Source of the DNA: Candidatus Latescibacterota bacterium
GTDB taxonomy: Bacteria; JAAXHH01; JACQVL01
Reading direction: 5' to 3'
NCBI GenBank assembly: GCA_016209865.1
Contig: JACQVL010000245.1
Location: 1-16,252 of the forward strand
Length of the DNA stretch: 16,252 nt
Shown: positions 5,145 through 16,252 of the stretch, piece by piece
Numbering within the stretch: the first letter of the stretch is position 1
How the letters are laid out: each line of letters opens with the position of its first letter
The notes under the pieces: model-generated
What the model saw: only the letters and a program-made list of their open reading frames with translations
Told to the model about the DNA's origin: nothing
The model's database searches: none
Made by a program: the position numbers and the translations under genes

Positions 5145-6467
5145 ATGCAGGGTGTCTCCAGAAGGCTGTCGCTGGTGTGCTGTCTGATCGGGCTGCTGGC
5201 GCTCCCGGTGTCGATCCCCGTCCTCAGCGCCGCTGATCAGGCCCAGGAGTCCGCTCCGGTGCTTCGTCTGGAAGACCTTGAGCGGCGAGCGCTCGACCAG
5301 AGTCCCGCCCTCCGCCAGGAGGCAGCCCGGGTGCGCGCGGCGAGCGGACGGACGACTCAGGCTGGTCTCTATCCCAACCCCGTCATCGGCTATAACGGGG
5401 ACGAGATCAGCCGTGGGCCGGTCATCCGGGGCGGCGAGCACGGACTCTTCGTCGAACAGCCGCTCGTCATGAGCGGCAGATTAAGGGTCAATCGCCGGAT
5501 GTTCAGACACGAGCAGCAGCAGGCCGAGGCCACGGCGGAGGCCCAGCAGTACCGGGTGCTCAACACCGTCCGCCTCCTCTACTACCAGGCGCTGGGGGCG
5601 GAGCGACTGGTGCAGGTGCGCGCAGACCTCGCCCGGATCGCCCGTGAAGCGGTGGATATCTCCGAGCAGTTGTACAACGTCGGTCAGGCGGACCGGCCGG
5701 ACGTGATCGAGGCTGAAGTCGAAGCAGAACGCGTGGACCTCGCCCTGACTCAGGCCCGGCAGAGACGGGAGACGGTATGGTGGCGGCTCGCCGAGGCGGT
5801 GGGCGATCCCTCGCTGAGACGCATGCCCCTGGCTGGCAGCCTTGAAGACTCCATCCCACCGCTCGACCAGGAGCAGGTCCTCCAGTCGCTCGTCCGCGAC
5901 AGTCCGGAGATCAAGATGACCCGCGCGGGCGTGGCACGAGCGGACGCGGCCCTCACGTACGCCCGCGTCGAGCGCATCCCGGACCTCGTCGTGCGAGGAG
6001 GATTGCGCTACAACCGTGAATTAATCGAGCGCGGGGGGCAGCCGGTCGGCCTCGAAGGCTTCGCGGATGCCGGCATCCGGCTTCCTCTCTTCGACCGCAA
6101 CCAGGGCAGCATCGCGGCGGCGCGGGCGGACATCGACCGCGCGGAGCACGAAGTCAAACGGGTCCAGCTCTCCCTGCAGACCCGACTGGCCGTGGCGTTC
6201 AGCGAATACCGGGTCACGCAGGACGCGGTGAGCCGGTACCGGAACACCATCCTCCCGCGCGCTCGACAGGCGTATGAGCTGTACCGGAACAAGTTCCAGC
6301 AGATGGCCGCCGCCTACCCCCAGGTCCTCATCGCTCAGCGGAACCTGTTCCAATTGGAGGATGAGTACGTGACCGCCCAGGTGAACCTGTGGCGGATGGT
6401 CGTGGCCATCCGCGGGTTCCTGCTCGTCGAGGGGTTTGAGGGGAGGGGCAGAGGAAGTGAAGAGTGA
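5145..6467 (+). CDS. TolC-family outer-membrane channel (CzcC/CusC-like)
   Basis: The protein has 440 residues, usual for the family. GTG 5139, ATG 5142 and ATG 5145 are all possible; 5145 puts AAGGAG 7 nt upstream and is preferred. A signal peptide (LVCCLIGLLALPVSIPVLSA) is followed by the internally duplicated TolC fold. The first half has LEDLERRALDQSPALRQEAA, GLYPNPVIGYNGDE and the helix QLYNVGQADRPDVIEAEVE. The second half has SPEIKMTRAGVARADAALTY, RIPDLVVRGGLRYNRE, GIRLPLFDRNQGSIAAARAD and a final long helix. LFDRNQG and YPNP are typical of metal-efflux (CzcC) members. It would form the trimeric outer-membrane exit duct of an RND or similar pump. No inner-membrane pump or adaptor gene is present in the window, so its partner lies elsewhere. 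It follows the oxidase by 75 nt, across the REP-like palindrome. Confidence 0.9.
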   Translation: MQGVSRRLSLVCCLIGLLALPVSIPVLSAADQAQESAPVLRLEDLERRALDQSPALRQEAARVRAASGRTTQAGLYPNPVIGYNGDEISRGPVIRGGEHGLFVEQPLVMSGRLRVNRRMFRHEQQQAEATAEAQQYRVLNTVRLLYYQALGAERLVQVRADLARIAREAVDISEQLYNVGQADRPDVIEAEVEAERVDLALTQARQRRETVWWRLAEAVGDPSLRRMPLAGSLEDSIPPLDQEQVLQSLVRDSPEIKMTRAGVARADAALTYARVERIPDLVVRGGLRYNRELIERGGQPVGLEGFADAGIRLPLFDRNQGSIAAARADIDRAEHEVKRVQLSLQTRLAVAFSEYRVTQDAVSRYRNTILPRARQAYELYRNKFQQMAAAYPQVLIAQRNLFQLEDEYVTAQVNLWRMVVAIRGFLLVEGFEGRGRGSEE

Positions 6468-6476
6468 AGAGTGCAG
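6456..6476. repeat. Heptanucleotide tandem repeat AGTGAAG, three units
   Basis: Units AGTGAAG, AGTGAAG and AGTGCAG run across the stop codon of the TolC-like gene (TGA at 6465-6467), so they encode its last residues. The convergent gap to the transporter gene is only 39 bp. Related pairs with AGTGACG-like units lie at 8322-8335 and 5102-5115. Confidence 0.8.
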
Positions 6477-6506
6477 AACTGTTCATTTCTCAGGCAGGCA
6501 TGTCGG

Positions 6507-7967
6507 TCACCCGGTGAGGCGGACGGCGACATACCACAGCCCCACGCCGATGTACACGGCGGTGACGACGATCATGAGCGCCCGGGTGACCGGATGGGGC
6601 TTCACCCACGCCGGGAACGTCCGGGGGAGCAGGACGTAGTTCAGGTAGATCAGCCCCGGACAGAACAGTCCCATCGCCAGGAACGCGATCACCCCGCGCA
6701 GGATGATGAGCTGGCCGGGTTCCGCCATGGCGAGCGTGGCCGTCGTCAGGACGGTGAAGAGGCCGACGAACCCGTAGTACACGCTCCGGAAGTGGAACCG
6801 TCGAACACGTGAGAAGTTGGCGAACAGGAAGTCCGCCTGCATCCGTGAGAACCCGTCGGTGAGCTGGAGCCAGGCGTCGCAGAGGAATGCCGCCGCGATG
6901 ATGAGAAACAGGGTTTTCCCGATCCCTCCCCAGCTCACCTCGAAGAACGCGGACTGGACGACCGCGATCTGCCAGCCCTGCGGGATCAACCCTTTCGGCC
7001 TGAGCAGCGCCCACGCCAGCCAGCACATGATCGTCGTCGTCAGCAGGTTCAACCCAACCCCGAGCCCCATCTCGACCGTCAGGTACCGCATGAACCCGCG
7101 GTAGTGCCGCCGGTTCTCCTCATTGTCCGTGAACCCGTAACCGGTCGAGGGGATCGCCTCCGCCGCGCCGCGCAGCGGACTGGTGACCCGGCCGATGTAC
7201 CGGGCCATCCCCACCCCTTTATCCCGCATCCAGTAGGACAGGAACAACTGGCCGAACCCGCCCGCGCCCGCGAACACGATGCCGGTCAGGACGATCGAGA
7301 GGTCTTTGGGGTCCCAGTTAGCCGGCCGATGGAGTCCTGGGGTGAGGAGGGCGCTGAAGAACTCTCCCGTCACCGCTAAGACGGGGCGCTGAAAGAGGGC
7401 GAAGACGATCCCCCCGATGGTGATCACGACGACCGTCGTCGTCAGCCGCTCGACGATCTTGTAGACGACCCGGCCGACCAGGAGGGCGCAGAGGTAGACG
7501 GCGATCGTCGTGTACGCCCAGAAGAGGGACTGGCCACGGGGCGTCCATCCGCCCGGCAGGCCGGTGAGCTCGGCCAAGGCGGTGCCGCCTGCCGACGCGT
7601 ACGCCCCGAACCAGATGTTCTCGATGAACACCCCGCACCAGATCAGCAGCGCGTACCCCCGGCTGATCCGGCTGAACCCGGTCATCGCCGTCTCCCCGGT
7701 GGCGATCGTGTACCGGGCGATCTCGAGGTTCACCCAGAGCTGCATGAGAGAGGCCGGGATGAGCAGGCCGAGGAACGCGCCGCCGTACTTGGCCGTCAGA
7801 TACGGCCACCAGATGAGCTCCCCGCTGCCCTGAGCGAGTCCAGCCCAGACGATCCCCGGCCCGAGGTAGGCCAGCAGACCGGCGAACGCGGGCATGGCGG
7901 CCACCTTCAGCGGCGCAAGCCGGCCAAGCGGGAGTTCCGGCTGACGGGCGACACGGTCATGGTTCAT
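6507..7967 (-). CDS. Nramp-superfamily transporter lacking the canonical metal motif
   Basis: The protein has 486 residues with about 11-12 hydrophobic segments. The opening LGPGIVWAGLAQGSGEL (35-51) aligns with Nramp helix 1, LGPGFLxSIAxLDPGN. The metal-binding DPGN is replaced by GSGE. In helix 6 the usual MPHN element is replaced by AGAGGFGQLFLSYWMRDKG (233-251). These changes place it in an Nramp-like branch often annotated as divalent-metal transporter but without the known Mn/Fe ligands, so the substrate is unknown. Glu50 could take over cation coordination; this is inference. Its ATG overlaps the STAS gene stop as ATGA, implying translational coupling. It is the last gene of the phosphatase-STAS-transporter operon and converges on the TolC-like gene. 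Confidence 0.8.
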   Translation of the reverse strand: MNHDRVARQPELPLGRLAPLKVAAMPAFAGLLAYLGPGIVWAGLAQGSGELIWWPYLTAKYGGAFLGLLIPASLMQLWVNLEIARYTIATGETAMTGFSRISRGYALLIWCGVFIENIWFGAYASAGGTALAELTGLPGGWTPRGQSLFWAYTTIAVYLCALLVGRVVYKIVERLTTTVVVITIGGIVFALFQRPVLAVTGEFFSALLTPGLHRPANWDPKDLSIVLTGIVFAGAGGFGQLFLSYWMRDKGVGMARYIGRVTSPLRGAAEAIPSTGYGFTDNEENRRHYRGFMRYLTVEMGLGVGLNLLTTTIMCWLAWALLRPKGLIPQGWQIAVVQSAFFEVSWGGIGKTLFLIIAAAFLCDAWLQLTDGFSRMQADFLFANFSRVRRFHFRSVYYGFVGLFTVLTTATLAMAEPGQLIILRGVIAFLAMGLFCPGLIYLNYVLLPRTFPAWVKPHPVTRALMIVVTAVYIGVGLWYVAVRLTG

Positions 7968-8299
7968 TGAGACGCTGCGACCGCCTCGTCTACAGTCTTA
8001 AAAACGTCGAACACCGGCAAGAGCCGGCTGACCGCCAGGATCGTGTACGGCCGTTCCGGCAGCCGGGCGAGTTTCAGGTCCCCGCCCACTTCCCGCATGG
8101 TCTTCATCCCGGCGATGATCATTCCGACGCCTGAACTGTTCATCAGATGGACGCCGCCCATGTCGAGCACGACGATCTTCGTCCCCTCGCTCTTCAGACT
8201 GTGCAGGCGGCCCTGGAACTTGTCCGCGTCATCCCCCATCAGGTTTCCACTCAATTCGAAGACCGCGACTCCACCGACCTTTCGTTCTTTCATCGCCAT
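7964..8299 (-). CDS. STAS-domain anti-sigma-factor antagonist
   Basis: The protein has 111 residues, a single STAS domain of normal length. Typical features are VAVFELSGNLMGDDADKF near the start, KIVVLDMGGVHLMNSSGVGM around the phosphorylation site (Ser56 is the likely residue, equivalent to Ser58 of SpoIIAA), and a final helix DVFKTVDEAVAA. Members switch partners: unphosphorylated, they bind an anti-sigma kinase and release its target; a PP2C phosphatase reactivates them. ATG 8299 follows GAGGAGG by 8 nt, preferred over the in-frame ATG two codons later. The upstream gene encodes exactly such a phosphatase, 51 nt away, and the downstream transporter gene overlaps by 4 nt. No RsbW-type kinase gene is nearby, so the kinase must be encoded elsewhere or the target is different. 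Confidence 0.93.
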   Translation of the reverse strand: MAMKERKVGGVAVFELSGNLMGDDADKFQGRLHSLKSEGTKIVVLDMGGVHLMNSSGVGMIIAGMKTMREVGGDLKLARLPERPYTILAVSRLLPVFDVFKTVDEAVAASQ

Positions 8300-8350
8300 G
8301 ATGAGTTCCTCCTCACAGAGCAGTGACGAGTGACAAGCAAAACAAGGCCA

Positions 8351-10018
8351 TTAGACTTCGTGTTCGACGATCGCTAAGGTGAGGTCATCCTGGTGCTCTG
8401 TGCCGGCCGCGAACCGATCCACGTCCTGTAAGATCGCGTCTCGCAGCGCCGGGGCCGGGCTTCCCCGCTGCACGGCAACTAAGTCGAGCAGCCGCTGCTC
8501 CCCATATTCCTCGTCCTCCGCGTTCCGGGTTTCAGTGACCCCGTCCGTGTACAACACCAACTTCGCGCCTGGCTCAAACGGCGTCTCGTGGATTCCATGC
8601 GGGACGTCCCGTTCTTCCATAATCCCGATCGGGATGCCGGTCGGCATGAGGACGGTCGTCGCCTCGCCCGCCGGGAGCAGGATGGGCGGGTTATGGCCCG
8701 CATTACAGTAGATCAAGGTGCGCGTCCGCCGGTCGATCTCCGCATGAAAAAAGGTGATGAACTGGCGGGGGTTCGCATGCTTCAGGATGTACTGATTGAG
8801 CCGGGCGATCCGCTCCTGAAGGGGGAGCCCGGTCTCGACCAGGGTGGTCAGGATCGACTCGCACGCGGCCATCAGCAGTGCCCCGGCCGGGCCCTTCCCG
8901 GCCACATCCGCGATCGTCACGGTCAGGACGTCTTCGTTGAGCGGGATAAAATCAAAATAATCCCCCCCGACCTGCAAGCACGCCCGGTTGAACCCGAGGC
9001 ACCGGAAGCCGGCGAACGCGTACGAACTGCCCGGTAACAGCCTGGCCTGGATCTGGGCCGCCAGGGCTAATTCCCTCTCCATCGCCGCCTGGACGACCGC
9101 CGCCGCCATCAGCCGGAGGTTGTCGATCTTGATCGCTGCCAGGTTGGCCACGGCGCTCAACATCCCCAGGTGATCCATGTTCAACCGTACTTCCTGCTCC
9201 GTCGTATCCAGGTAGAACAGCCCGAACACCTGATCCTCATGCCAGAGCGGGGCGCAGAGGATGGAGGTAATCCCTCGGTTGATGACGCTGTCCTGGGCCT
9301 TAAACCGCTCGTCCTGCCCGGCGTTCGTCGTGAACAAAGCCATCTTATTCTCGATCACTTCCTGCGCGGCAGTCTTACTGATCGTCAGGTCCCTGACCAT
9401 GTCGGGCGTGGAGCAGGCTATAGCTTTGATATCCAACTGGTATCCATCAGGATGAGATTGCTGATAGACGATCGCGCAACAATCCGCCTGGAACCAGTCC
9501 AGGATATGTTGAGCCAGGAACTCGGCCAGAGCGTACTCATCTTTCATGGATATGATGTCTTTACTCAACCGGTTCAAGAGGAGCAGGTTGTGCTGCCTGG
9601 TGGGGGTATCGTCCTGGGGGCTCTGTTCGACCATCGTGTACGGCAGTTGGTCGGCCTTGAACATCGACGCCTGAAACTGCGGGTCGTTCGGTCCCAGCAC
9701 CATGTTGGCGGTCGTCGTCTTCGCCGGCGGGTTGACCAGGTACTTCATGATCGTCTGGCCGACCCGAACCTGGTCCCCGACCCTGAGCGGGATCTCCTGC
9801 TGGAGCACCGTCTCGTTCAGGAACGTCCCGTTCGAGCTGTCCATGTCCTTCACCAGGTAGAGTTCCCCGGTGCGACGAAGCTGTGCATGATGGCGCGAGA
9901 CCCCGGCGTCATGGAGCAAGATATCGGCATCCTTCGCCCGCCCGATCATGACCGTCTCTTTCGACAGCGAGTACGTCTGCGCTTCGCCCTGGGCGGTGAT
10001 GATATGAAGGTACGGCAT
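8351..10018 (-). CDS. FHA-GAF-PP2C (RsbU/SpoIIE-type) serine phosphatase
   Basis: The protein has 555 residues from ATG 10018, chosen because GGAGAG lies 9 nt upstream and the FHA domain follows at once. The frame could extend to GTG 10108, but that segment crosses an operator-like dyad and has no ribosome site. Residues 1-95 are an FHA phosphopeptide-binding domain (IGRAKDADILL, SRHHAQL, SSNGTFLN). Residues about 140-310 are a GAF sensor domain. Residues about 320-555 are a PP2C/SpoIIE phosphatase with complete metal-binding motifs: VGGDYFDF, IADVAGKGPAGALLMA, YCNAGHNPP, LYTDGVTETRN and QDDLTLAIVE. It should dephosphorylate a STAS protein, and the next gene encodes one. The FHA domain suggests that a Thr kinase supplies an input; the GAF ligand is unknown. 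Expression is probably from the divergent promoter region at 10129-10159. Confidence 0.93.
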   Translation of the reverse strand: MPYLHIITAQGEAQTYSLSKETVMIGRAKDADILLHDAGVSRHHAQLRRTGELYLVKDMDSSNGTFLNETVLQQEIPLRVGDQVRVGQTIMKYLVNPPAKTTTANMVLGPNDPQFQASMFKADQLPYTMVEQSPQDDTPTRQHNLLLLNRLSKDIISMKDEYALAEFLAQHILDWFQADCCAIVYQQSHPDGYQLDIKAIACSTPDMVRDLTISKTAAQEVIENKMALFTTNAGQDERFKAQDSVINRGITSILCAPLWHEDQVFGLFYLDTTEQEVRLNMDHLGMLSAVANLAAIKIDNLRLMAAAVVQAAMERELALAAQIQARLLPGSSYAFAGFRCLGFNRACLQVGGDYFDFIPLNEDVLTVTIADVAGKGPAGALLMAACESILTTLVETGLPLQERIARLNQYILKHANPRQFITFFHAEIDRRTRTLIYCNAGHNPPILLPAGEATTVLMPTGIPIGIMEERDVPHGIHETPFEPGAKLVLYTDGVTETRNAEDEEYGEQRLLDLVAVQRGSPAPALRDAILQDVDRFAAGTEHQDDLTLAIVEHEV

Positions 10019-10102
10019 CGAAACGGACTCTCCGGCCGTGCGAGACTTCTGATGCCCCTGATTCACGGGCGCGGGAGGAATCAACAGACAGGCGGGACGC
10101 GA

Positions 10103-10121
10103 CATCACGTCAGACGTGATG
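10103..10121. promoter_or_regulatory. 19-bp dyad, operator candidate in the phosphatase leader
   Basis: CATCACGT-CAG-ACGTGATG is a perfect 8-bp inverted repeat with a 3-bp centre. It lies just past the predicted transcription start of the phosphatase operon and 85 bp before its ATG. It suits a dimeric regulator; the protein is unknown. Confidence 0.5.
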
Positions 10122-10128
10122 CATCGTG

Positions 10129-10159
10129 CTTATAGTATAAGAAATCCATTCAGTGTCAA
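10129..10159 (-). promoter_or_regulatory. Promoter of the phosphatase-STAS-transporter operon
   Basis: On the minus strand a perfect -35 TTGACA (10154-10159) is followed by overlapping -10 candidates. TATACT (10134-10139) has a 14-bp spacer and TATAAG (10129-10134) a 19-bp spacer. The -10 area is itself a dyad, CTTATA-G-TATAAG (10129-10141), so it also offers a -10 box to the plus strand, though no good plus-strand -35 is seen. A 19-bp spacer would suit a MerR-type activator, but no dyad fits the spacer. Confidence 0.45.
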
Positions 10160-10169
10160 GGAGGAAAAT

Positions 10170-10232
10170 ATGAGGCCTCGAAGATCGGGCAACAGCCGCG
10201 CATCGAAGAAAACAGAGCCGCAGCGTCGATGA
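10170..10232 (+). CDS. Possible 20-residue basic peptide gene
   Basis: ATG 10170 follows a full AAGGAGG by 5 nt and opens a 20-codon frame, MRPRRSGNSRASKKTEPQRR, ending at TGA 10232. Nine of 20 residues are Arg or Lys. The frame ends inside an intrinsic terminator hairpin (10209-10249). It could be a leader peptide controlling read-through towards etfA or a free-standing small gene. Basic composition in GC-rich DNA can arise by chance, so the ribosome site is the main support. Confidence 0.35.
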   Translation: MRPRRSGNSRASKKTEPQRR

Positions 10233-10249
10233 GATGGCGGCCTGTTTTT
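10209..10249 (+). terminator. Intrinsic terminator or attenuator upstream of etfA
   Basis: AAAACAG-A-GCCGC (10209-10221) pairs with GCGGCCTGTTTT (10237-10248) over 12 bp with one bulged A and a 15-nt loop, ending in TTTTT (10245-10249). CATCGA (10201-10206) could instead pair with TCGATG (10226-10231) in the loop, so alternative folds exist. The 264-bp spacer 10109-10372 also has a perfect TTGACA at 10255-10260 that could serve etfA, but its -10 (TACTTG, 10278-10283) is poor. Confidence 0.6.
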
Positions 10250-10372
10250 CTTGCTTGACATTGGGAATGAGCTGGATTACTTGGTCACATGGATGGGCTC
10301 GTCAATCGCGTGCCATCCCAAGCTCCAGCCATCAAGACTGAAGGGTGATCGCTGATCTTCACAGGAGGCTGT

Positions 10373-11356
10373 ATGGCAGGTGTCCTCGCATTCGCGGAAC
10401 AACGGGACGGGGTCTTCAGGAACGCGGCGTTCGAGGTAGTGAGCGAAGGGCGGAAGCTGGCGAATGAACTGGGCGGTGAGATGGTGGCTGCCGTCATCGG
10501 GTCGGGGGTCGAAAGCCCCAGCGCGTCGCTCGGACGGTATGGGGCGGATCGCGTCCTGGTGGCCGACGAGCCAGTCTTCCAGTCGTACTCGACGGAAGGG
10601 TACGCGGCCGCGCTCACCGGAATGATCCGGGTGGCCAGCCCGTCGATCGTGCTCCTGTCGGCGTCGGCGATGGGGAAAGTGTTGGGGCCGGCGGTGGCGG
10701 CGCGGCTGGGGACCGGACTGGCGACAGATTGTACGGGGCTTGCTCTCGACGGGGAGCGTGTGCGCGCGGAACGGCCGGTGTACGCCGGGAAAGCGCTCGC
10801 CACTGTGATTATCCGGACAGACCCCCAGATGGCCACCTTACGGCCAAACGTCTTCCCGGCGACGGTCGTCGATGAGGGGCGGGTCGCGCCGGTCGAGCGG
10901 TTTACGGCTAACGTCGACCCGGCGAGCATCCGGGCGCGGGTGCGTGAGGTGGTCGCGTCCTCTGTGGGCAAGCTCGACCTGACTGAAGCGCCCATCATCG
11001 TCTCAGGCGGACGCGGTCTCGGCGGGCCCGAGCACTTCACGCTGGTCGAAGAGCTGGCGGCAGTCCTGGGCGGCGTCGTCGGCGCGTCCCGTGCGGTGGT
11101 CGACCTGGGCTGGCGGCCGCAATCCGATCAGGTCGGCCAGACGGGGAAGACGGTCTCTCCTTCCTTGTACATCGCCTGCGGCATTTCGGGGGCGATCCAG
11201 CATCTCGCCGGGATGTCGTCGTCGAAATGCGTCGTCGCCATCAACAAAGACCCGGACGCCCCGATCTTCCAGAAGGCGGACTATGGGATCGTCGGGGACG
11301 TGTTCGAGGTCGTGCCTGCGCTGACGGCTGAACTGAAGCGGGCGCTGGGACGGTGA
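10373..11356 (+). CDS. etfA: Electron transfer flavoprotein alpha subunit
   Basis: The protein has 327 residues, usual for EtfA. ATG 10373 follows AGGAGG by 4 nt. The N-terminal alpha/beta domain (about 1-200) has [10 protein letters not shown] and [20 protein letters not shown]. The C-terminal FAD domain (205-327) has the signature run [49 protein letters not shown], and [20 protein letters not shown]. The EtfAB heterodimer carries electrons from acyl-CoA and other dehydrogenases to the quinone pool through ETF-QO. The unusual point is the missing partner: etfB normally lies directly beside etfA, but here a 264-bp control region lies upstream and convergent recA downstream. Either etfB is encoded elsewhere, or this gene was separated by rearrangement. 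Confidence 0.95.
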
Positions 11357-15135: not shown

Positions 15136-15402
15136 TCATTCGTAATGATACTTGCAAGAGATAATAATAACGTCTTCATCGGTGACTTTATAGACCAAAC
15201 GATGCTCATCATTAATCCGTCGTGACCAGAATCCTTTTAGTTCATGCTTGAGTGGCTCAGGTTTGCCGATCCCCGAAAACGGCTGATGAAGAATGTCCAT
15301 AATCAGCCCAGCAATCCTCTGATAGAGCTTCTTATCTACAGTTGCCCATTCGACAAAATCTTGAAAGGCACCCTTTTCAAAGACGATTTTTCTCACTGTC
15401 AT
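15136..15402 (-). CDS. YoeB/Txe-family toxin, ribosome-dependent mRNA endonuclease
   Basis: The protein has 88 residues, close to E. coli YoeB (84). The family core is nearly intact: KPEPLKHELKGFWSRRINDE, HRLVYKVTDEDV and the C-terminal ISCKYHY. The residues equivalent to the YoeB catalytic set E46, R65 and H83 are present as E49, R68 and H86, so the toxin should be active. Family toxins bind the ribosomal A site and cleave mRNA there. ATG 15402 overlaps the antitoxin stop as ATGA, the usual coupling for these pairs. The stop codon lies within ATCATT-CGT-AATGAT (15135-15149 area), a weak dyad. Base composition is far lower in GC than in the flanking genes, suggesting acquisition. Confidence 0.92.
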   Translation of the reverse strand: MTVRKIVFEKGAFQDFVEWATVDKKLYQRIAGLIMDILHQPFSGIGKPEPLKHELKGFWSRRINDEHRLVYKVTDEDVIIISCKYHYE

Positions 15403-15632
15403 TCGTCTAATTTGACCGTGACAAGATCGCGATTATGGGTAACATTCTCTATCGCTCTTAGTAGACGCTCCCGATTGGCTGGTGACCTCAGCAAGTAAGC
15501 CGTTTCATCTTCCTCACTTTCAGCGGTCTCGCAGACGACGATTTCGATCTCCTTATTTTTAAACATTGTCTTTAACGCTCGTAGAAACCGACTATCCAAT
15601 TCGTCTGCATTGACCCGATAAATCGAGTACAT
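15399..15632 (-). CDS. YefM/Phd-like antitoxin with non-classical N-terminus
   Basis: The protein has 77 residues and lies directly before the toxin gene with a 4-nt overlap. ATG 15632 follows AAAGGAGG by 6 nt. The C-terminal half DETAYLLRSPANRERLLRAI (42-61) matches the toxin-binding helix of YefM antitoxins. The N-terminal half does not look like the usual Phd/YefM DNA-binding fold. It reads NADELDSRFLRALKTMFKNK followed by EIEIVVCET, a pattern I recall in an uncharacterised antitoxin group. It should neutralise the toxin and repress the operon, probably at the palindrome over the promoter (15684-15693). Antitoxin role is firm from position and C-terminus; the DNA-binding mode is unknown. 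Confidence 0.85.
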   Translation of the reverse strand: MYSIYRVNADELDSRFLRALKTMFKNKEIEIVVCETAESEEDETAYLLRSPANRERLLRAIENVTHNRDLVTVKLDE

Positions 15633-15829: not shown

Positions 15830-16252
15830 TCACTTGAGCAAGGTCATTCTGCGGGTCTGACTGAACCCGGCGCTCGTCGTCAGCCGGTACAGGTAGACGC
15901 CGCTGGCCACGCTCAGCCCTTGTGCATTCCGCCCGTCCCAACTCACCCCATACCGCCCCGGCGCTTGCTGCGCATCCACCAGGCGCACGACTTCCTGCCC
16001 GACCAGGTTGTACACCGCCAAGACGATGTGCGCGGCCTGCGGCACGTCGTAGGCGATCGCCGTCGTCGGGTTGAACGGGTTCGGTCGGTTGGCGCGCAGG
16101 GCAAACGCGGTCGGCAGCGGGGCCACCTTCACCGTGCCGGTCCCCACGACCACCGGCACCGCCTGCGCCTGCGCGTTGGCCAGCAGCACGGCGGAGAGTG
16201 TCAGTGTCGGCGTGGCGGCCGGGTCGCCCAGTACGGTCACCGGCACCAGCAG
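15830..16252 (-). CDS. C-terminal part of a secreted protein with FlgD-like/T9SS-style sorting domain
   Basis: The frame ends at TGA 15830-15832 and is open through base 16252, so only the last 140 residues are seen; the GTG at 16246 is internal. The first part (VTVLGDPAATPTLTLSAV) looks like a beta-rich extracellular module. The end is a typical FlgD Ig-like C-terminal domain: LRANRPNPFNPTTAIAYDVP, then VLAVYNLVGQEVVRLVD, APGRYGVSWDGRN, ASGVYLYRL and a final TRRMTLLK. In Bacteroidota such domains direct type IX secretion and cell-surface anchoring; the same form is abundant in other FCB-group and candidate phyla. The catalytic or binding part lies beyond the window, so the function is unknown. 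Confidence 0.85.
   Translation of the reverse strand: MLVPVTVLGDPAATPTLTLSAVLLANAQAQAVPVVVGTGTVKVAPLPTAFALRANRPNPFNPTTAIAYDVPQAAHIVLAVYNLVGQEVVRLVDAQQAPGRYGVSWDGRNAQGLSVASGVYLYRLTTSAGFSQTRRMTLLK

What the first reader, a model, noticed from the sequence alone, without database searches (positions are those of the whole stretch)
6507..10018. Partner-switching module fused in one operon to an Nramp-like transporter
An FHA-GAF-PP2C phosphatase, a STAS antagonist with its phosphorylatable Ser, and a membrane transporter are encoded in one unit; the last two genes overlap by ATGA. Phosphatase-STAS pairs normally control a sigma factor through an RsbW-type kinase, and no kinase or sigma gene is present here. 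One reading is that the STAS protein acts on the transporter itself, as STAS domains do within SulP carriers. Gene order and domains are seen; the direct link is inference.
Basis: partly seen in the sequence, partly recalled or inferred. Interest (0 to 1): 0.65.

Follow-up and report, generated by a model that had tools for sequence, protein, structure and literature searches.

The report
Phosphatase, STAS and transporter gene cluster
Two parts of a common bacterial phosphorylation switch sit, in this one genome, in the same run of genes as a membrane transporter; a likely partner kinase is encoded elsewhere in the genome and all readable relatives keep the transporter apart, so a direct switch-to-transporter link is possible but unsupported.

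Summary
The three genes are real and placed as described: FHA-GAF-PP2C phosphatase (10018-8351), STAS protein (8299-7964) and Nramp-like transporter (7967-6507), all on the minus strand, the last two overlapping by ATGA. The phosphoacceptor is Ser55, not Ser56. The interpretation mostly fails. (1) "No kinase" holds only for the window: the same genome has an RsbW-type kinase (contig C159) with orthologs in all 15 relatives of the order. Its homologs lie within 3 kb of this STAS type in 17 of 34 more distant genomes that have both (about 0.1 expected), often with a PP2C gene and no clear sigma gene. (2) The transporter occurs in 14 of 15 relatives, never beside STAS or PP2C where flanks can be read; none of 80 transporter loci from many phyla has the three-gene order. 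Phosphatase and STAS also stand apart in relatives. (3) The transporter has the Nramp fold but lacks the metal-site Asp/Asn and Met, so "divalent metal transporter" is doubtful. Best reading: an ordinary RsbU-RsbV-RsbW phosphoswitch with dispersed genes, two of which became clustered with a phylum-wide transporter gene in this lineage. Direct gating of the transporter by STAS is not excluded (about 10%).

The parts
8351..10018 (-). FHA-GAF-PP2C (SpoIIE/RsbU-type) serine phosphatase, 555 aa; the PP2C motifs GGDYFD, DVAGKG, TDG and QDD are present
   Evidence: Pfam SpoIIE 160.6 bits, FHA 69, GAF 42; full-length orthologs of 47-49% identity in 13 genomes of the same order
7964..8299 (-). single-domain STAS protein of RsbV/SpoIIAA type, 111 aa, phosphoacceptor Ser55
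   Evidence: Pfam STAS 61.9 bits; aligned to SpoIIAA, RsbV and TM1442; reciprocal best match of STAS genes in 14 genomes of the order
6507..7967 (-). Nramp-fold transporter of the NF037982 subgroup, 486 aa, with GSGE in place of DPGN in TM1
   Evidence: NF037982 224 bits; AlphaFold mean pLDDT 88.7 and Z 35.2 to DraNramp; 75-77% identical homologs in the order
7964..7967 (-). ATGA overlap: transporter start codon inside the STAS stop
   Evidence: sequence read directly
8308..8313 (-). AGGAGG ribosome-binding site 8 nt before the STAS start
8135..8137 (-). codon of Ser55, the expected phosphoacceptor
   Evidence: first Ser of N-S-S-G, aligned to the Ser that is Ala in the SpoIIAA chain 1tid_B; invariant in the aligned homologs of this type, while position 56 varies
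7818..7829 (-). codons 47-50 (GSGE) of the transporter, at the place of DPGN of classical Nramps
   Evidence: invariant in 35 aligned homologs; structural register model 36 = DraNramp 45
10132..10159 (-). promoter-like site TTGACA-16-TACTAT upstream of the phosphatase; the only minus-strand site found in 6300-10400
   Evidence: consensus match only

Best explanation
The phosphatase and the STAS protein are the RsbU-like and RsbV-like parts of an ordinary phosphoswitch. An RsbW-type kinase encoded elsewhere in the genome (contig C159, 16071-16550) phosphorylates STAS Ser55, and the FHA-GAF-PP2C phosphatase removes the phosphate when its FHA/GAF part receives a signal. Unphosphorylated STAS then captures the kinase or another partner. 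The three genes of the switch are dispersed in this phylum. In the lineage of this genome, phosphatase and STAS became joined upstream of a phylum-wide Nramp-fold transporter gene. The likely consequence is shared expression (one transcript, translational coupling), not STAS binding to the transporter. Shown: gene order, domains, presence of the kinase, conservation and neighbourhoods. Inferred: phosphorylation, pairing of this kinase with this STAS, co-transcription, output.
For: The genome has RsbW-type kinases. The C159 kinase has orthologs of 49-56% identity in all 15 relatives of the order. Outside the order, same-strand homologs of that kinase and of this STAS lie within 3 kb in 17 of 34 genomes with both (12 within 500 bp; about 0.1 and 0.02 expected), and kinase-PP2C within 3 kb in 12 of 26. 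STAS-kinase-PP2C clusters were read directly in ten of these genomes, with no clear sigma gene beside them. STAS Ser55 and the PP2C motifs are intact. In relatives the transporter stands without STAS or PP2C beside it; STAS homologs lie next to unrelated metabolic genes, and the phosphatase ortholog sits beside an alcohol-dehydrogenase-like gene.
Against: The kinase is assigned to this STAS by neighbourhood in distant genomes, not by experiment. Three genes conserved separately in the phylum came together here, which can itself signal a shared function. In nine genomes of one related genus, phosphatase and transporter lie on one strand 32-36 kb apart, a weak hint of old linkage. No SigB/F/G-type sigma factor passes the curated cut-off in this 83%-complete genome, so the output of the switch is unknown.
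Confidence: 0.7

Rival explanations
1. The STAS protein binds the transporter and gates it, and phosphorylation of Ser55 controls the binding. The phosphatase thus switches transport on or off.
For: STAS and transporter genes overlap by ATGA. The STAS protein MlaB binds the ABC ATPase MlaF in trans, with the Ser-equivalent Thr52 at the interface (PMC7367683), and STAS domains are part of SulP/SLC26 carriers (PMC8256260).
Against: Adjacency is found in this genome only: none of 80 related transporter loci has it, nor any relative of the order with readable flanks. Relatives keep a 75-77% identical transporter without it. No transporter homolog has a fused STAS domain. The two papers in the library that hold both terms do not link STAS domains with Nramp proteins in this sense, judging by title and abstract.
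Confidence: 0.1
2. The cluster is a neutral rearrangement. The proteins share a promoter but no function, and the transporter is simply a downstream passenger.
For: All three genes are conserved apart in the phylum; adjacency is unique to one genome.
Against: Tight packing (51 bp, then a 4-bp overlap) and a good ribosome-binding site before STAS suggest a kept operon. This overlaps with the best explanation and differs only in whether shared expression is useful.
Confidence: 0.17
3. The junction is an assembly or binning artefact.
For: The genome is a fragmented assembly of 356 contigs, 83% complete.
Against: Phosphatase, STAS and transporter all have their closest relatives in the same order; the overlap keeps both reading frames intact.
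Confidence: 0.03

Closest known systems
RsbU-RsbV-RsbW / SpoIIE-SpoIIAA-SpoIIAB partner switch (Bacillus)
   Same: PP2C phosphatase with sensory domains, STAS protein with the phosphoacceptor Ser, and an RsbW-type kinase in the genome
   Different: the kinase is unlinked, no SigB/F/G-type sigma factor was found above the curated cut-off, and a transporter gene follows STAS
RbaV-RbaW-RbaY of Rhodobacter capsulatus (PMC3999984)
   Same: partner switch in which no cognate sigma factor was found and the STAS protein may set the output
   Different: there rbaV and rbaW overlap; here STAS overlaps a transporter gene and the kinase is apart
MlaB-MlaF (PMC7367683)
   Same: precedent for a single STAS protein acting on a transporter in trans
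   Different: the partner there is an ABC ATPase; the protein here is an Nramp-fold carrier with no ABC protein beside it
SulP/SLC26 carriers
   Same: STAS domain associated with a membrane carrier
   Different: in SulP the STAS domain is part of the carrier chain; here it is a separate protein and the carrier has the Nramp fold
Nramp/SLC11, including NRMT and PxpT/YcsG
   Same: same fold; Z 35.2 to DraNramp, 32.8 to EleNRMT, 33.8 to a YcsG model
   Different: the metal-site Asp and Asn of TM1 are Gly and Glu, and no Met lies in the TM6 break. PxpT of Corynebacterium, in the same TCDB family, is needed for growth on 5-oxoproline (PMC13274462), so the substrate may not be a metal

Membership tests
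RsbU/SpoIIE phosphatases | PP2C/SpoIIE catalytic domain with its metal-binding motifs | tested here: met
   160.6 bits to PF07228 (cut-off 25); GGDYFD, DVAGKG, TDG and QDD read in the sequence
RsbV/SpoIIAA antagonists | single STAS domain with the phosphoacceptor Ser | tested here: met
   61.9 bits to PF01740; Ser55 at the RsbV/SpoIIAA/TM1442 position. The score for TIGR00377 is 51.1, just below its cut-off of 53.45
RsbU-RsbV-RsbW partner switch | RsbW-type kinase in the genome that pairs with the STAS protein | tested here: inconclusive
   kinase present and its homologs lie beside this STAS type in 17 of 34 distant genomes; pairing not tested by experiment
RsbU-RsbV-RsbW partner switch | target sigma factor of SigB/F/G type | tested here: not met
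   no match over the TIGR02980 cut-off (best 119 of 234 bits); the genome is 83% complete, and partner switches without a known sigma factor exist
Nramp/SLC11 | Nramp fold | tested here: met
   Z 35.2, 373 residues, 2.5 A to DraNramp, above other LeuT-fold families (Z up to 27.4)
Nramp/SLC11 metal transporters | DxxN (or DxxG in NRMT) in TM1, with the Asp described as universal (PMC8806188) | tested here: not met
   GSGE at this place, invariant in 35 homologs and kept in seven more distant members examined
Nramp/SLC11 transition-metal transporters | A/CxxM in TM6 | tested here: inconclusive
   AGAGGFGQ at the TM6 break (residues 233-240) holds no Met, but the exact register to DraNramp in TM6 was not verified
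SulP/SLC26 carriers | STAS domain fused to a SulP membrane domain | tested here: not met
   separate genes; no fused homolog among 38; the carrier matches Nramp structures

The most novel reading that the evidence does not exclude
A phosphatase-controlled STAS protein directly gates an Nramp-fold carrier, a STAS-in-trans control not described for this fold, which arose in one lineage by gathering three previously separate genes into one operon.
Probability: 0.08. Interest if true: 0.6.

Novelty: new member of a known kind. Interest (0 to 1): 0.25.

Why it matters
If the simple reading holds, it is a further case of a partner switch whose genes are scattered and whose output is not an obvious sigma factor, and it warns against reading function from one gene order. 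If the direct reading held, it would extend STAS control in trans from ABC transporters (MlaB) to Nramp-fold carriers. The large GSGE subgroup of Nramp-fold proteins, annotated as divalent metal transporters without the usual metal ligands, deserves a substrate test of its own.

Tried and rejected
No solved structure matched the transporter by sequence, alone or as a profile; only the fold did. A scan of viral contigs found no relative; plasmids hold only distant Nramp-like proteins of about 30% identity or less in the rows shown. A profile search for STAS and PP2C in the 80 transporter loci gave one STAS protein about 3.6 kb from the transporter in L147, not adjacent. The co-occurrence test of STAS and transporter outside the order has no power, because no sampled genome there had both at the cut-offs used. 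A second genome of this family could not be found: the order holds 16 genomes here and only this one is of its family. A literature search for a lanthanide or methanotroph role of the transporter gave nothing on this subgroup in titles and abstracts.

Full report
Observation. The window is contig C192 of a 3.75-Mb assembly of 356 contigs. Its closest relatives are deposited mostly as Candidatus Latescibacterota, some as Gemmatimonadetes or Zixiibacteriota. On the minus strand lie a 555-aa protein with FHA, GAF and SpoIIE/PP2C domains (10018-8351), a 111-aa STAS protein (8299-7964) and a 486-aa membrane protein (7967-6507). The gap before STAS is 51 bp and holds AGGAGG 8 nt before its start; the transporter ATG overlaps the STAS stop. 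One promoter-like site lies upstream of the phosphatase, and no terminator-like site lies between the genes on that strand. An operon is therefore likely but not shown.

Phosphosite. Aligned to TM1442, SpoIIAA and RsbV, the STAS motif N54-S55-S56-G57 places the phosphoacceptor at Ser55; a SpoIIAA chain in the PDB (1tid_B) has Ala at that position.

The kinase. The window has no kinase gene, but the genome has several HATPase_c_2 proteins, two of them strong: one in a PP2C-kinase-STAS cluster on C321 and one alone on C159. The C159 kinase has orthologs in all 15 other genomes of the order. Among 34 genomes outside the order with homologs of both this kinase and this STAS, the two lie within 3 kb on one strand in 17 and within 500 bp in 12, against about 0.1 and 0.02 expected; kinase and PP2C are close in 12 of 26 genomes, STAS and PP2C in 9 of 26. 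Direct reading of these regions shows STAS, kinase and PP2C genes together in ten genomes, and a search with four sigma-type reading frames of this genome found no clear sigma gene in them; the only hits, in L262, fall mostly outside a clear sigma region of a 479-aa query frame. The absence of a linked sigma gene is thus usual for this type of module. No SigB/F/G-type sigma factor passes the curated cut-off in this genome.

Gene order elsewhere. The transporter occurs in 15 of the 16 genomes of the order held here, this one included. Where flanks can be read in the relatives, neither STAS nor PP2C lies beside it, nor in any of 80 loci from many phyla. Orthologs of the phosphatase (47-49%) occur in 13 relatives and lie elsewhere; G011 and G013 lack it but keep transporter and STAS. 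The STAS homologs of 14 relatives (44-54%) have the window STAS as their best match in this genome, and in the three read in full they lie by metabolic genes. In nine genomes of one genus, phosphatase and transporter lie on one strand 32-36 kb apart, perhaps a trace of old linkage.

The transporter. It has no Pfam match and matches NCBIfam NF037982. The AlphaFold model (mean pLDDT 88.7) matches DraNramp at Z 35.2 over 373 residues, with other LeuT-fold families at Z 27.4 or less. In structural register the DPGN of classical Nramps is GSGE here, invariant in 35 homologs and kept in the seven more distant members examined. The TM6 break holds AGAGGFGQ without Met. PMC8806188 describes the TM1 Asp as universal in SLC11, so a metal substrate is doubtful. 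For the relative YcsG, Mn2+ import has been reported (PMC10448178) and, through its homolog PxpT, 5-oxoproline uptake (PMC13274462).

Conclusion. The simplest account is a standard phosphoswitch with dispersed genes, of which two are clustered with a phylum-wide transporter gene in this lineage. Precedents for switches without a known sigma factor (RbaV, PMC3999984) and for STAS control of a transporter in trans (MlaB, PMC7367683) exist, so the direct reading stays possible but has no support beyond gene order in a single genome.

Noticed in passing
window 15136-15632, minus strand: YoeB-type toxin gene (15136-15402, 116.9 bits) preceded by an overlapping 77-aa reading frame (15399-15632) that may be its antitoxin.
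   Followed up: partly
L208 9261-10775 and 16068-16550 (contig C159): A second GSGE-type Nramp-fold protein, 28% identical to the window's, lies about 5.3 kb from the lone RsbW-type kinase gene, on the other strand with genes between.
   Followed up: partly
L203, L194: In relatives of two other families the phosphatase ortholog sits beside an alcohol-dehydrogenase-like gene and a gene for a fatty-acid-ligase-like protein.
   Followed up: no
L117-L122: In one related genus the transporter gene is flanked by amidohydrolase-like genes, which might hint at an organic substrate.
   Followed up: no
L003 and L004 (contigs C70 and C96): Two contigs carry the same RsbR-like STAS sequence, a duplicate or an assembly overlap; on C96 it is followed by an RsbS-like and an RsbT-like gene.
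   Followed up: no
window 15830-16252, minus strand: C-terminal end of a protein with an NPFNPTT motif and a FlgD Ig-like match, as in secreted proteins with a sorting domain.
   Followed up: no
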